NCBI GenBank assembly: GCA_945889175.1
Contig: CAMDBF010000005.1
Coordinates: 1-53,599, forward strand
Direction of reading: 5' to 3'
DNA: 53,599 nucleotides
Source of the DNA: Rickettsia typhi
Lineage (GTDB): Bacteria > Pseudomonadota > Alphaproteobacteria > Rickettsiales > Deianiraeaceae
Positions 19,343 through 53,599 of this stretch are shown here, one piece after another (position 1 is the first letter of the stretch; each line of letters starts with the position of its first letter). The notes beneath the pieces were generated by a model, which was not told where the DNA came from, made no database searches, and saw only the letters and a list, made by a program, of their open reading frames with translations. A program made the position numbers and the translations under genes.

Positions 19343-19453
19343 AATGTTTATATTATTAATTTTAAAAAATGCTTAAGCTAAAAGCTTATTGACAATAAAA
19401 CACAAAAGAAAGCTCTAGGCTTTATATTATCAATCTATTTGTATTATAGTATT

Positions 19454-22400
19454 ATGTTTTTTTCAAGTATTTTAGACTCATTAATTCCTTCAAATGTTTT
19501 ATCAGCAGTAAAAGCAACAACAAGCTTAATAAATAACTTTAATAAATTTAATGATGCAATGCAAAATAATGGCGGAAATGGCGATATTACCTTTATATCA
19601 AACAGCGATATAAATTTTGCACAGGATGGTGCGGTTGTACCAATCGTTTATGGCACTGCAATAGTTAGGGGGCAAAAGATATGGTCAAGCGACATAAGGC
19701 TAACAACAATTATGCCAAGTGTAAGCGATGTTCTTTTAAACTCTACATCAACAACTAAAGCAAGAAGATACATTGACATAGCTTATATGATATGCGGGGG
19801 TGAAATAGATGATGTTTTGCAAGTGTACCATGTTACAAAACCAATTAGCATTGAGGGTTATGATTATGTAATTTACAAAGGCACTGAATATCAGAAGGCC
19901 GATCCTACAATAAAAAATGCAATTTCAAAAGATTTAGCATTTAGAGGTACTGCTTACATTGTTTTTAAAAACTTAGATATTACAAACTTTGGGGGCAATG
20001 CACCAAACCTTTATTTTAAGGTAAAAAGAAGCAAAATAAATTATCAAAAAATATACAATCCTTGCCCTTTAATCAAAGGGGTAAATCTAATCCCCGGTAG
20101 CGGCGAGTTTGTACTTGATACAAAAATACAAAGTAAGCAAAATGGTAACTTTAACGGACAAACATTTGTACCAAAAGGAATACCCACAAGTATTAATCAA
20201 AATACAGGATATGGTAAATCCGATTTGTCAGTTTCTCTTGACGGACTTAAAAAGGAGCTGCCAAATGTTAAATGGGTATCAAGCGTTGTATGTTGGTTTT
20301 GCGACGGCATGAACATTTCAAATGCAGAGATTTATCCTGCCGTAGAATATTCTTTTAGCGGAATATCTTTGCCAGATGATTGGAGTGTTGCTGGGATTAC
20401 TAGGCAAAATGCAAGACTGGTGTCAAGAGATGAATTTGACAGACCAAATTATGGAGGGACGATAGCGGATGTGGCTGTTTTAAGAGGGCTTGATGAGCTG
20501 AGGTTAAGAGGTTATAAGACAATGTTTTACCCTATGATGATGATGGATGTTGCAAAAAAACCTTGGCGAGGACATTTAAGTGGAGATGCTGGTGAGGTTT
20601 ATAATTTTTTTAACAAAACAAACGGTTATAATGACTTTATCTTACATTGTGCAAATCTTGTCAAGGGCAAGGTTGATGCCTTTATTATAGGTAGCGAGTT
20701 TATAGGTCTTACAAAACTAAAGCTAAACAACATATATCCGGCGGTTGAAGAGTTTAAAAAGCTTGCAAAAAAAGTAAAAAATATACTTGGCTTCGAAGTT
20801 AAGATATCCTACGCTGCAGATTGGAGCGAGTATCACCACACCGATGGTGGATGGTACAACCTTGACCCATTATGGGCGGATGAAAATATAGATTTTATAG
20901 GCATCGATCAGTATTTTCCCTTAAGCGATGGACTTGCAAATCCAAGTGTTGAAGATATTATTAAAGGATTTACATCTGGCGAGGGGTATGATTTTTATTA
21001 CAAGTGGGAAAGGACTCAAAAATACCCCCTTTCAAAACCCTATGCTTGGAAGGATGTTAGATGGTTTTTAGAAAACGAGCACCAAAACCCCGATGGTACA
21101 AAAACAAGTTGGAGACCTCTTAGTAAAAAGATTTGGTTTGTGGAATATGGCTTTCCATCCGTAGATTTATGCACAAATCAGCCAAATGTTTTTTACAATC
21201 CCGATGCTTTTGACGGGGGCTTGCCAAGGTTTTCGCAGGGCTATACCGATTTTAAAGCCCAGCAAGATGCAATTTTTGCAAGCGAGACATTTTTTAGTCT
21301 TAATAGTGATATTATTGAAAATGCCTTTTTATGGGCTTGGGATGCAAGGCCGTTTCCGTACTTTCCAAAGCTTTTAGATGTTTGGAGTGATGGGGGGCTT
21401 TGGAGGTTTGGTCACTGGGTTAATGGTAAGCTTAACATGTCTAATCTTGGTGATGTAATAAGAGACATCTGCTTGCAGGCTGGCTTTGCACACGAGGAGA
21501 TTGATACAAATCTTTTAAGTCAGGAGGTTGATGGTTTTATTTTAAACCGCAAGATGAGCTTTGAGTCGGTAATTAAAATGTTATCACTTGTATATTTGTT
21601 TGACTGTGTGTATGAAAAATCTGTGTTAAAATTTATACCCCTAAATCTTTTAAAGCAAGTTGTTATTGACCAAAGCGACATTATTGTTGACGATGCTTTA
21701 ATTAATGAATACAAGGATACTCAAAAGACAGATACTACAAGAATTGTCTCTCTTGACCTCTATTTTTACAACAAGGACGATGATTACAACCTTGGCAATG
21801 TAAAGATTGGTATTGATTCTATGCAGTCAAGTCAAACCAAGCAAATTCAGGTGCCGGTAGCTATGAACCTTGCCAAGGCTCAGGAGCTTTCGACCATCTT
21901 ACTTGACGCCCTAAACGGCATACAGGATTACACTTACATCTCGCTACCCATTAACAAATACAAAGATATTAAGCCGCTTGATGTTTTAATTTATAACGAA
22001 AAAGATATTATTAAAAATTTAATTGTTAAAAAACTTGAGACGGATGGCTTTACTTTAAAAATTCTTGGTCAAAATATCGATTCCAGTTTTTTTAGCTTAG
22101 CTAGCAACTATCAGGTTGCAAGGCTTAAGTATCAAGATCAACAAATCTCGGTGCCTAGCCAGCAAAGCGGTAAGTATACACCAATTTTGCAAGATAGTAT
22201 TTTTGAAAATGGCTTTTACATAGGTGTTGTAAAGACTGATAGCAATATCACAAACTTTGATGAACTAAGCGTTTTTGCTTCAAAGGATGGGGGCATTTTG
22301 TATAACAAAATTTGCGAGGTAAGGCAGGCTTGTCAAAATTTTAAGATTATCGATTTTTACAAGTCGCAAAATATTAATCCATCTCTTATTGATGGAGTGT

Positions 22401-22768
22401 CGTATGCTGTTATAGAATGTGACAAGACGCCAGTGACAGGGCTTAAGTTTGTTTTGGGCGGTGAGATTGTTGAGTTTTATAGCATGCAAAAGCTTGATAA
22501 TTATAATGGCAAAAGCCCCGCCGCAGAATGCAGTTTTTACAAGCTTAGTAATTTTTACAGACCTCACCTGCAGGCAATTATAGCTAGCAAAATGGAGAAT
22601 AAACTAAATGCAATTACCACAAATCTAGGGGTAGAAACAATGTTTATTGATGACTCTATTCAGTTTGTTTCAAAAGAAATAATTGCTGGGCAAAATCTTA
22701 AAATTAAATTACTTACCCCAAGTGATACCCTGGTCTCGGTAAAAGCACATCCCTTTACCGCAGAATAA
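19454..22768 (+). CDS. GTA-type tail hub protein ('megatron', TIM-barrel plus phage-tail domains)
   Basis: Baseplate hub/fiber protein of the alphaproteobacterial gene transfer agent family (RcGTA gp15-like, which threads the tail tip). After an N-terminal region (PIVYGTAIVRGQKIW, about residues 58-72), residues ~270-655 form the GTA TIM-barrel-like domain: CWFCDGMNISNAEIYP, PNYGGTIADVAVLRGLDELR, FIIGSEFIGLTKL, YAADWSEYHHTDGGWYNLDP, FIGIDQYFPLSDG, WFVEYGFPSVD, AFLWAWDARPFPYFP. Residues ~655-1104 are the phage-tail region. From the ATG at 19454 it has 1104 aa, somewhat shorter than the ~1300 of RcGTA. An in-frame TTG at 19439 would add five residues. It stands alone: no capsid, portal or other tail gene is within 20 kb. 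The frame is intact. Confidence 0.92.
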   Translation: MFFSSILDSLIPSNVLSAVKATTSLINNFNKFNDAMQNNGGNGDITFISNSDINFAQDGAVVPIVYGTAIVRGQKIWSSDIRLTTIMPSVSDVLLNSTSTTKARRYIDIAYMICGGEIDDVLQVYHVTKPISIEGYDYVIYKGTEYQKADPTIKNAISKDLAFRGTAYIVFKNLDITNFGGNAPNLYFKVKRSKINYQKIYNPCPLIKGVNLIPGSGEFVLDTKIQSKQNGNFNGQTFVPKGIPTSINQNTGYGKSDLSVSLDGLKKELPNVKWVSSVVCWFCDGMNISNAEIYPAVEYSFSGISLPDDWSVAGITRQNARLVSRDEFDRPNYGGTIADVAVLRGLDELRLRGYKTMFYPMMMMDVAKKPWRGHLSGDAGEVYNFFNKTNGYNDFILHCANLVKGKVDAFIIGSEFIGLTKLKLNNIYPAVEEFKKLAKKVKNILGFEVKISYAADWSEYHHTDGGWYNLDPLWADENIDFIGIDQYFPLSDGLANPSVEDIIKGFTSGEGYDFYYKWERTQKYPLSKPYAWKDVRWFLENEHQNPDGTKTSWRPLSKKIWFVEYGFPSVDLCTNQPNVFYNPDAFDGGLPRFSQGYTDFKAQQDAIFASETFFSLNSDIIENAFLWAWDARPFPYFPKLLDVWSDGGLWRFGHWVNGKLNMSNLGDVIRDICLQAGFAHEEIDTNLLSQEVDGFILNRKMSFESVIKMLSLVYLFDCVYEKSVLKFIPLNLLKQVVIDQSDIIVDDALINEYKDTQKTDTTRIVSLDLYFYNKDDDYNLGNVKIGIDSMQSSQTKQIQVPVAMNLAKAQELSTILLDALNGIQDYTYISLPINKYKDIKPLDVLIYNEKDIIKNLIVKKLETDGFTLKILGQNIDSSFFSLASNYQVARLKYQDQQISVPSQQSGKYTPILQDSIFENGFYIGVVKTDSNITNFDELSVFASKDGGILYNKICEVRQACQNFKIIDFYKSQNINPSLIDGVSYAVIECDKTPVTGLKFVLGGEIVEFYSMQKLDNYNGKSPAAECSFYKLSNFYRPHLQAIIASKMENKLNAITTNLGVETMFIDDSIQFVSKEIIAGQNLKIKLLTPSDTLVSVKAHPFTAE

Positions 22769-23165
22769 CAAACTAATGTCAATAGACCTCTTTCATAACC
22801 TCACTATATAGAATATTTTTCAAACTACTCTCTTTTAAAAATAAATCTCTCTGCAATAGCAAGGTCAGATCGCCACCCCCCCCCTGCCGTCTAAAGGCAG
22901 CTAAGGGGGATTGGTAGTATATAACACCACTTCTACTTGTAAAATTAGATTATATACATCCCCCCAGCCCTCCCCCTAAAGGGAGAGGGAGAAGAAAGGG
23001 TATTGCAACCACCCCTAAAGGCATAAAGAAGACACCTCCAAAGGGACGGAGAAGAATATAGGTTATAGCCCTCGCTAAAGGGAGAGAGGAAGATGGCTTA
23101 CGACCTCACCAATAAGAAGAAAGGGGAGTCTATTTTGTTATAATAATATTTAAAATGTTATATTA
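22769..23165. repeat. Intergenic repeat cluster D between convergent genes
   Basis: No gene. The stretch begins with a segment (22836-22885; TTTTAAAAATAAATCTCTCTGCAA-like) shared with 40830-40890. It leads into a C8 run and an inner hairpin CTGCC (22884-22888) / GGCAG (22896-22900), then GGGGGATTGG. From about 22968 to 23110 there are four or five degenerate units of CCCCTAAAGGGAGAGGGAGAAGA, partly tandem. Composition is much more GC-rich than the flanks. It separates the 3' ends of the hub gene and the unknown 553-aa gene, so it could act as a bidirectional 3'-end structure (inference). Confidence 0.75.
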
Positions 23166-24827
23166 TTACTTAGAACTACTTATTACCTTACATTCCCATG
23201 TTTCCTTTTTGCTGTTTGGTGTTTGCTGTTTGCGTTTTGCTGTTTGCGTTTTGCTGTTTGCGTTTTGCTGTTTGGTGTTTTCATAATATCCATCATTCAA
23301 ATGGCTGAAACTGCACTCTGTGAAATTGATGAAAGGAAATGAGTCAGATTCTACTGGGTCATATTTTTGTCTATTTTTTGGATTTATATTAACACATGAA
23401 CTTTCAGTAGTATTCAATTGTTTATATATTTCGTCGTCTGGAAGGGATTGTGTTTTTTCTTTTAATATTTGTTTATATTTTATAGCAGCAAGCACAATAC
23501 AAATCGCTGCAGCAATCCCGATAACAGACATAAGAGCAACAAAGGTTCCATCAATTTTAGGCCCAATTGCAATTCCTGGTGTTATGTCTTTAAAATTACC
23601 TACCACACCTTTAAAATTGTCAGGTGTTAACTTTGTACCATCAAAGTTGTTTATTTTCAGGTTTTTTATAAAAGTGCCATTAACATCTTTAATTTGTATC
23701 AAGGTTATTGTTGATGGTTGCTTGAATACCGCAATACTCATTTTTGAAAAATCCGCAGGATTGTCGCTAGGAAAGCTTATTACACTGTTTTGGTTAAAAC
23801 CATCAAGTTCATCGCCCGATTCTGCATACTTAATACTGCCGGTTGGGTATTTGTTATCTGGCCAATTTGTTGGCATTTGATAAACATTATCTGTAGCTTC
23901 TAATTGATTGTAATAACTAATCCATGGTTCCTTAGCGTGTTTAAAAACTTTGTAAAAATTACCATCAACATAAAAGCTTTCATCGTTTTCTATTGTTTGA
24001 GTGAATGGCTTTGTACTAAAGTTTTGCGAAAAGTTAACTAGAGTTCCATTATTAAAAAAAAATTGGTTTTGCATTAAATCGTTAATATTTACCCCAGATT
24101 CAAGCCTCGACTGAAGCAATATGTTTTTAACAACCGACCCATCAGCACCCTGAACCTGTAAAATAACATATGGCTTACCAGCTGAATCAAAAACCTGTTT
24201 TAAGCTAAATGTATTGTCAACTTGATTAAAGTTTTCAAGTTCGATCTTAAATCGTAAAGGATCTTCAATAATTGCAGTAGAGAACTGTCCATTGTTTGGT
24301 ACAAGGTAAGTTTGACCTTTATCAATATATTTATATTGAGGGCTATAAAAAGCAGGTTCAAGGTAATTGTGATAAAAATTAGCATCAAAGGGTTCTCCAG
24401 AAGCTAATGGCTTATCAAAACCTAAGGGGTTTTGTAAAAAACCTTTTTTTATATTTAATGTTGGAACGGTTTTAATGTTGCTAATAATATCACTAGCTGA
24501 TATGTTTTGAATACAGCTAACTTTCTTTACGACTCCATTACTGTCAACAACTTCAAGCAAGGTTGTTGGAGTATCGTAGCCTAGGTATGAATAAAAAGTT
24601 GCAAGATGAAGAGAGTAGCTGTCATCTTTTACTACATTACTAAAATCAAAAGACGAAAGATTATTATTATCAACCCTAAAGGACTCAAACATTTTATTTC
24701 CATCGGGTGCATAAACACCTTTTGCATTAATAGCATTATCGTTCCATTCAAAAGATACCTTTTTTGCAAGAGTGTTAACATATTCTTCGTTTATAAGTAA
24801 GTCACGTTCATCGTAGTATAATTGCAT
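23166..24827 (-). CDS. Unrecognised membrane protein with three internal repeats
   Basis: A 553-aa protein from the ATG at 24827 (an in-frame TTG at 24836 adds three residues). I know no family for it. Three related segments of about 60 residues lie near 51-119, 194-254 and 350-408. Each contains a hydrophobic strand, a D/N-G turn and a V/I-K: TTLLEVVDSNGVVKKV, YVILQVQGADGSVVKNI, ITLIQIKDVNGTFIKNL. One membrane helix follows at about 429-449 (FVALMSVIGIAAAICIVLAA) with the basic flank KYKQILKEK, then a ~95-residue polar tail. There is no N-terminal signal peptide. The tail's end is encoded by a 14-bp tandem repeat. It may be a surface protein; last gene of the fabD run, 167 bp after the Hda-like gene. 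Confidence 0.75.
   Translation of the reverse strand: MQLYYDERDLLINEEYVNTLAKKVSFEWNDNAINAKGVYAPDGNKMFESFRVDNNNLSSFDFSNVVKDDSYSLHLATFYSYLGYDTPTTLLEVVDSNGVVKKVSCIQNISASDIISNIKTVPTLNIKKGFLQNPLGFDKPLASGEPFDANFYHNYLEPAFYSPQYKYIDKGQTYLVPNNGQFSTAIIEDPLRFKIELENFNQVDNTFSLKQVFDSAGKPYVILQVQGADGSVVKNILLQSRLESGVNINDLMQNQFFFNNGTLVNFSQNFSTKPFTQTIENDESFYVDGNFYKVFKHAKEPWISYYNQLEATDNVYQMPTNWPDNKYPTGSIKYAESGDELDGFNQNSVISFPSDNPADFSKMSIAVFKQPSTITLIQIKDVNGTFIKNLKINNFDGTKLTPDNFKGVVGNFKDITPGIAIGPKIDGTFVALMSVIGIAAAICIVLAAIKYKQILKEKTQSLPDDEIYKQLNTTESSCVNINPKNRQKYDPVESDSFPFINFTECSFSHLNDGYYENTKQQNANSKTQTAKRKQQTPNSKKETWECKVISSSK
23211..23280. repeat. 14-bp tandem repeat, five units, inside a coding region
   Basis: Five abutting 14-bp units on the plus strand: the middle three (23225, 23239, 23253) are identical GCTGTTTGCGTTTT and the outer two (23211, 23267) are GCTGTTTGGTGTTT. 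Because 14 is not a multiple of three, gain or loss of one unit would shift the frame for the last ~14 codons of the minus-strand gene, changing its C-terminus. In protein it gives a Gln/Asn/Lys/Thr-rich tail. Confidence 0.9.
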
Positions 24828-24994
24828 AAAAAACAAAACAATAATAATAAAGTATTCTTCTCGAAAGTATAATATATTTAATCATTATTGTCAAGTTTTT
24901 TTATATTTTTATAAACTTACCTCAAACTACAGATAGACATTTATTAAACAACAATAATTGCTTTATTGGTTTTATTTACAAAGATTGCATTGAA

Positions 24995-25579
24995 TCAGCT
25001 TTGACCTACAAGGTTCCAAAGATAGTCGTAGCTTCTTTTGCAATCCTCGGGTTTTATCTGGTGAGCCGATGTTTTGTGTAGGGAAATGTTTTTTAAGACA
25101 ATCTCCACCTCTGCAACCGATGGAATTTTTAATGCAATATTGTTTAAAGACAAAAGTCTTGAGCTAATCTCGGTTGGAATTTCGTTTAATCTAATATTGG
25201 TTGTGTCGCAAATAATTTGTACCCTTAGCTCGTCCCTTAAGGCAAGCTCTGTTAAATAAAAAATTGCAGTTTTTTGCTGATAGCTATCCTCACCTTGCTT
25301 GCTTAAACATATCTGTTGCATTAAAGGTGTTATATCGACAACAAACTTTACATGAAGATTTGCACTTGGCACTATATCCTCGGCTATGCTTTCGGGGTCT
25401 ATAAGTCTCAGTCCATTTTCGGTTAACAGATTTTTTACAACTAATATGCCATCCTCTGGCTTGCCAAAAAAGATTGATTGTAGAGGAGCCCTAAGGGCGG
25501 TTTCAAAAAGACTTGTTCCTTCAAAAAATCTTATGCAATCGTGACTTACATTATCGTAAAAATCTATTGACGCCTGCAT
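24995..25579 (-). CDS. Hda/DnaA-family-like protein with degraded P-loop (tentative)
   Basis: A 194-aa protein resembling the AAA+ core of DnaA-related regulators (Hda, HdaA), which promote DnaA-ATP hydrolysis on the clamp. The matching parts are a Walker B-like VKFVVDIT near residue 80, a sensor-like stretch LRVQIICDTTNIRLNEIP, then SSRLLSLNNIALKIPSVAEVE, echoing the 'pDL.SRL......i..P' block of Hda. Where Walker A should stand, FFGKPEDGILVV lacks the GKT, so ATP binding is doubtful. Gene order (after fabD and carbonic anhydrase, 18 bp gap) gives no functional help. ATG at 25579. Alternative: an unrelated hypothetical protein. Confidence 0.45.
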   Translation of the reverse strand: MQASIDFYDNVSHDCIRFFEGTSLFETALRAPLQSIFFGKPEDGILVVKNLLTENGLRLIDPESIAEDIVPSANLHVKFVVDITPLMQQICLSKQGEDSYQQKTAIFYLTELALRDELRVQIICDTTNIRLNEIPTEISSRLLSLNNIALKIPSVAEVEIVLKNISLHKTSAHQIKPEDCKRSYDYLWNLVGQS

Positions 25580-53468: not shown

Positions 53469-53599
53469 TCATATCCAGTCAACTAATTTTAACACTAACA
53501 TTAGACCTCTTCCTTAACCCCTACCATCTTAAACCCCTCCCCTCTTAGGGGAGGGTGGGTGGGGTAAATATCTATTAAACCTCTTTTATTCTATTAATC
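53469..53599. repeat. Intergenic repeat at the right edge
   Basis: Non-coding tail downstream of the glycosylase gene. It contains a perfect 9-bp hairpin CCCTCCCCT (53535-53543) / AGGGGAGGG (53547-53555) with loop CTT. In inverse orientation the segment matches cluster A (GGAAGAGGTCTAAT, then TACCCCACCC-ACCTCCCCT). It may act as a transcript 3' structure for the rplJ-to-glycosylase run. Confidence 0.8.

What the first reader, a model, noticed from the sequence alone, without database searches (positions are those of the whole stretch)
23166..24827. Unknown membrane protein with triplicated ~60-residue module
Three diverged copies of a strand / D-N-G turn / V-I-K module, then one membrane helix with a basic flank and a ~95-residue tail. 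There is no signal peptide, yet the basic residues after the helix would place the 430-residue repeat part outside the cytoplasm by the positive-inside rule. A repeat-containing surface protein with unusual topology fits an adhesin or envelope-interaction role.
Basis: partly seen in the sequence, partly recalled or inferred. Interest (0 to 1): 0.62.

Follow-up and report, generated by a model that had tools for sequence, protein, structure and literature searches.

The report
Orphan single-span membrane protein pair
A one-helix membrane protein with three weakly similar modules and no export signal, found only in this bacterium (two copies), is probably a lineage-specific host- or neighbour-interaction protein; it is a real gene, but its function cannot be read from its sequence.

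Summary
The finding is real but ordinary in kind. The gene is on the minus strand (ATG 24827, stop 23166, 553 aa). It has three diverged copies of a beta-beta-(D-x-x-G turn)-beta-alpha module, one strong membrane helix (427-449) with a basic C-terminal flank, a 104-residue tail and no signal peptide. The module similarity beats shuffles in every pairing, weakly (2 to 35 of 2000), always in the same register. The same genome holds a diverged paralogue (388 aa, 51% identity, two modules, same helix and flank, no signal peptide). The pair is under purifying selection (dN/dS 0.36; 0.10 in the membrane-proximal module), and each gene has its own near-consensus promoter. No relative was found in 344 genomes of the order, 385 sampled from the class, viral, phage or plasmid collections, Pfam, PHROGs, NCBIfam or PDB sequences. 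Two structure models gave no confident fold. The genome carries a Rickettsiales-type type IV secretion system (VirD4, two VirB4). Best reading: a lineage-restricted single-span protein exported by that system. A non-exported inner-membrane protein is nearly as likely. The adhesin reading with the N-terminus outside needs a 426-residue export without a signal peptide and is least favoured of the three.

The parts
23166..24827 (-). Orphan gene, 553 aa (P0001): three-module soluble part, one membrane helix, C-terminal tail
   Evidence: paralogue and dN/dS 0.36 over residues 149-466
24866..24894 (-). Near-consensus sigma-70-like promoter TTGACA-17-TATACT (11 of 12); the paralogue has TTGACT-17-TATAAT at the same relative place
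   Evidence: consensus match only, best-scoring in each region
24471..24620 (-). Module 1 (residues 70-119): three strands with D-S-N-G turn, then helix
24060..24218 (-). Module 2 (residues 204-256): three strands with A-D-G turn, then helix; preceded by a strand and helix in the segment model
23604..23747 (-). Module 3 (residues 361-408), next to the membrane; best conserved part between the paralogues (dN/dS 0.10)
23481..23549 (-). Membrane helix, residues 427-449, followed by basic flank KYKQILKEK
23169..23480 (-). C-terminal tail, residues 450-553; last 35 residues have 9 basic and 2 acidic residues
23199..23280 (-). Tandem array of 7/14-bp units that encodes the basic end of the tail (QQNANSKTQTAKRKQQTPNSK); absent from the paralogue; adding one or two 7-bp units leaves an open frame

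Best explanation
A real, expressed-looking, lineage-restricted gene and its paralogue encode single-span membrane proteins whose large N-terminal part is built from tandem small alpha/beta modules. Most likely they are made without a signal peptide, handed through VirD4 to the genome's Rickettsiales-type type IV secretion system by way of the polar C-terminal tail, and end up in a target membrane, with the modules acting as a binding surface next to it. Shown: gene, modules, helix, flank asymmetry, absence of a signal peptide, paralogue, purifying selection, presence of VirD4 and two VirB4. Inferred: export, target membrane, binding role.
For: Both proteins lack a signal peptide and have one C-terminal-side membrane helix with a tail of 104 or 69 residues. 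Genome has VirD4 and two VirB4, the VirB4 duplication being a hallmark of the Rickettsiales system (PMC11077975, PMC2653234); VirD4 is in all 18 genomes of the family. Published analysis: nearly all predicted Rickettsia membrane effectors are single-span, over 60% of type IV membrane effectors have tails over 70 residues, and type IVA signals are often basic C-termini (PMC12981334); P0001 ends in 9 basic/2 acidic residues of 35. Restriction to one species, duplication, fast change outside module 3 and own promoters suit an interaction protein.
Against: No effector domain, no E-block; the paralogue's C-terminus is neutral (3 basic/3 acidic of 25). Most Rickettsia membrane effectors are predicted N-in/C-out (PMC12981334), whereas the basic flank here predicts C-in. 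The basic end of P0001 is a DNA tandem repeat, so may be accidental. No linkage to secretion genes. Whether the organism lives with a host is not shown: no ATP/ADP translocase was found (in a search whose controls were silent).
Confidence: 0.38

Rival explanations
1. A non-exported inner-membrane protein: the three modules stay in the cytoplasm (N-in) as a docking or sensing platform, the helix anchors them and the tail lies in the periplasm.
For: A long soluble N-terminal part without signal peptide followed by one helix is the ordinary way to make an N-in bitopic protein (general knowledge); no signal peptide in either paralogue; strict conservation of the membrane-proximal module.
Against: Basic residues lie on the C side in both paralogues (4/2 and 3/1 against 2/2 and 0/1 on the N side), against the positive-inside rule. 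No conserved neighbours or partners.
Confidence: 0.32
2. One reading: N-out/C-in surface or periplasmic protein, adhesin-like, with the repeats outside the cytoplasm.
For: Flank charge asymmetry kept in both paralogues; repeated modules are common in surface proteins (general knowledge); PMC11077975 notes that RickA reaches the bacterial surface without a Sec signal peptide.
Against: 426 or 297 residues would have to cross the inner membrane without a signal peptide, and an inner-membrane span does not place them on the outer surface. No adhesin family or fold matched. No autotransporter domain in the genome.
Confidence: 0.16
3. A cargo or structural gene of a phage or gene-transfer agent, as its convergent neighbour encodes a GTA TIM-barrel/phage-tail protein.
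For: Neighbour 19439-22768 matches GTA_TIM and Phage-tail_3.
Against: No match in phages, viral contigs, PHROGs or viral structures; the neighbour is convergent, the other neighbours are housekeeping genes, and the paralogue lies next to riboflavin synthase on another contig.
Confidence: 0.04

Closest known systems
Single-span transmembrane effectors of type IVA secretion systems (Rickettsia and others, reviewed in PMC12981334)
   Same: One membrane helix, no need of a signal peptide, C-terminal tail over 70 residues in P0001, basic C-terminus in P0001, VirD4 and a Rickettsiales-type system in the genome, gene duplication
   Different: No sequence similarity to any named effector family in Pfam or NCBIfam; flank charges predict C-in while Rickettsia ones are mostly N-in/C-out; translocation untested
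VOC (glyoxalase/bleomycin-resistance) beta-alpha-beta-beta-beta module
   Same: The segment model of module 2 reads beta-alpha-beta-beta-beta-alpha, and several of the weak matches are VOC proteins
   Different: Best Foldseek E 0.11 and VIA Z about 3 at mean pLDDT 56, no sequence match; not above background
Bitopic (single-span) bacterial inner-membrane proteins of unknown function
   Same: One helix with a large soluble part
   Different: No shared family; tandem diverged modules and restriction to one species

Membership tests
Type IVA secretion effector (membrane type) | Translocated by the type IV system in a VirD4-dependent way | not testable with these tools
   needs a translocation assay
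Type IVA secretion effector (membrane type) | A VirD4/VirB4-type system in the same genome | tested here: met
   VirD4 on C3, VirB4 on C3 and C26
Type IVA secretion effector (membrane type) | Polar, often basic C-terminal signal | tested here: inconclusive
   P0001 strongly basic, paralogue neutral; no E-block
Type IVA secretion effector (membrane type) | Sequence family or domain of a known effector (common, not obligatory) | tested here: not met
   No Pfam or NCBIfam match
Surface adhesin exported by Sec | N-terminal signal peptide | tested here: not met
   No hydrophobic N-terminus in either paralogue; upstream in-frame codons hold only one further start, TTG three codons upstream
Autotransporter adhesin | C-terminal beta-barrel domain | tested here: not met
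   No Pfam match in the protein and none in the genome
VOC superfamily | Paired beta-alpha-beta-beta-beta modules with confident fold match | tested here: inconclusive
   Topology similar in a low-confidence model; matches at background level
Phage or GTA structural protein | Relatives in phage or viral collections | tested here: not met

The most novel reading that the evidence does not exclude
A bitopic protein whose 300-430-residue N-terminal part, made of a fold not seen before, is moved out of the cytoplasm without a signal peptide (N-out/C-in), either by an unusual inner-membrane route or by the type IV system from an inner-membrane intermediate.
Probability: 0.08. Interest if true: 0.55.

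Novelty: new member of a known kind. Interest (0 to 1): 0.27.

Why it matters
If it is a type IV substrate, it adds a lineage-specific membrane effector candidate with a testable modular binding region from a poorly known, reduced-genome lineage, and bears on how effectors arise anew in each Rickettsiales lineage. If it is only an inner-membrane orphan, it matters little.

Tried and rejected
(1) A longer repeat unit of 130-150 residues (linkers seemed to share KP..F..NFY..VYxxP): linker profiles do not find each other, so the repeat is only the ~50-75-residue module. (2) More members: the module profile finds the five known modules and otherwise only hits of E 0.008 or worse; the two put to inspection lie in a locus with a DnaB-like helicase and a locus with a fimbrial chaperone/usher-like set (names from memory). 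(3) Other genomes: relatives, order, class sample, genome contigs twice, viral contigs, phages, plasmids: nothing. (4) Fold: full-length model mean pLDDT 40, segment model 56; no match above background in PDB or BFVD. (5) Synteny: in the one same-genus genome the 194-aa neighbour is followed by a ribonuclease-H-like gene and riboflavin synthase by a mannose-1-phosphate guanylyltransferase-like gene; no diverged counterpart at either site (names from memory). (6) ATP/ADP translocase as a sign of intracellular life: not found, but no control genome rang. (7) PDB sequence searches: only chance-level hits.

Full report
Observation. The ORF described lies on the minus strand, ATG at 24827 and stop ending at 23166, 553 aa. 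The plus-strand frame is closed. A TTG three codons upstream is the only other start in frame, and a near-consensus promoter (TTGACA-17-TATACT) ends at 24866, so no longer N-terminus with a signal peptide is plausible.

Repeats. The three modules share the pattern x-S-L-x-x-x-V-F ... P-x-x-x-L-L-Q-[IV]-x-D-x-x-G-x-x-x-K-N-x-x-I-Q-N ... helix. By HMM against shuffled targets every pairing exceeds chance, best for modules 2 and 3 (2 to 5 of 2000) and weaker for module 1 (23 and 35 of 2000). Plain pairwise scores and hhalign are weaker but always land on the same hairpin. AF2 on the full protein is poor (mean pLDDT 40; only residues 165-270 mostly at 50-76), but its secondary structure repeats three times as strand-strand-strand-helix. 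A second model of the module 2 segment (mean pLDDT 56, about 60-75 in the core) reads strand-helix-strand-strand-strand-helix.

Paralogue. The same genome carries a second gene, G000:C27:14738-15904 (L003), 388 aa, 51% identical over residues 149-467. It lacks module 1, keeps modules 2 and 3, the helix and the basic flank, has no signal peptide, and has its own TTGACT-17-TATAAT promoter. Nei-Gojobori dN/dS is 0.36 over the shared part, 0.10 in module 3, and 0.4-0.5 in module 2, linker and tail (dS is near or above 1 and therefore rough). Both are thus functional genes with a conserved membrane-proximal module.

Distribution. Nothing else was found: relatives, 344 genomes of the order with a profile, 385 genomes sampled from the class with the profile of residues 258-408, genome contigs, viral contigs, phages and plasmids, Pfam, PHROGs, NCBIfam and PDB sequences. 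In the one same-genus genome available the corresponding sites hold no such gene. It is an orphan of one species as far as the held data go.

Setting. The genome is 1.16 Mb and AT-rich (window G+C 35%), with a VirD4 and two VirB4 proteins; VirD4 is in all 18 family genomes. A duplicated VirB4 is a hallmark of the Rickettsiales vir-homologue system (PMC2653234, PMC11077975). The order is therefore probably Rickettsiales; this is inference, as no named relative could be fetched. Neighbouring genes are housekeeping (adenylosuccinate lyase, MnmE, DnaX-like, TyrRS) apart from a convergent gene-transfer-agent tail protein. No autotransporter domain was found in the genome.

Mechanism. Three placements are possible: exported by the type IV system into a target membrane; kept in the inner membrane with the modules inside; or modules outside. 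A published survey (PMC12981334) describes Rickettsia membrane effectors as almost all single-span, type IV membrane effectors as mostly having tails over 70 residues, and type IVA signals as often basic at the C-terminus, which P0001 matches (9 basic/2 acidic in the last 35) and its paralogue does not. Orphan status, duplication and uneven constraint also suit an interaction protein. I put export at 0.38, inner-membrane N-in at 0.32 and the N-out reading at 0.16. None is shown.

Verdict. A correct observation of a genuine but undeciphered orphan protein. Orphan single-span proteins are common in such genomes (general knowledge), so the interest is modest.

Noticed in passing
window 23199-23280: 7/14-bp tandem array (GCAAACA / GCAAAACGCAAACA) inside the 3' end of the gene; all frames tested stay open, so slippage would change rather than truncate the C-terminus.
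   Followed up: partly
window 22782-22800, 130-148, 265-283, 53501-53519; L003 132-150, 476-494, 16244-16262: Dispersed element with core ATAGACCTCTTTCATAACC beside both paralogues and close to contig ends; probably a repeat that breaks the assembly and may have helped the duplication.
   Followed up: partly
window 19439-22768 (+): 1109-aa gene with GTA TIM-barrel and phage-tail domains standing alone among housekeeping genes.
   Followed up: no
window 24995-25579 (-): 194-aa protein without any Pfam or NCBIfam match, found in the same-genus genome (40% identity) but in no other family member searched.
   Followed up: partly
L003 7853-12706 (+); L022 3042-13172 (-): Very large proteins without family match: 1617 aa, Cys-rich, with an apparent signal peptide; and 1854 and 1506 aa next to the second VirB4.
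   Followed up: no
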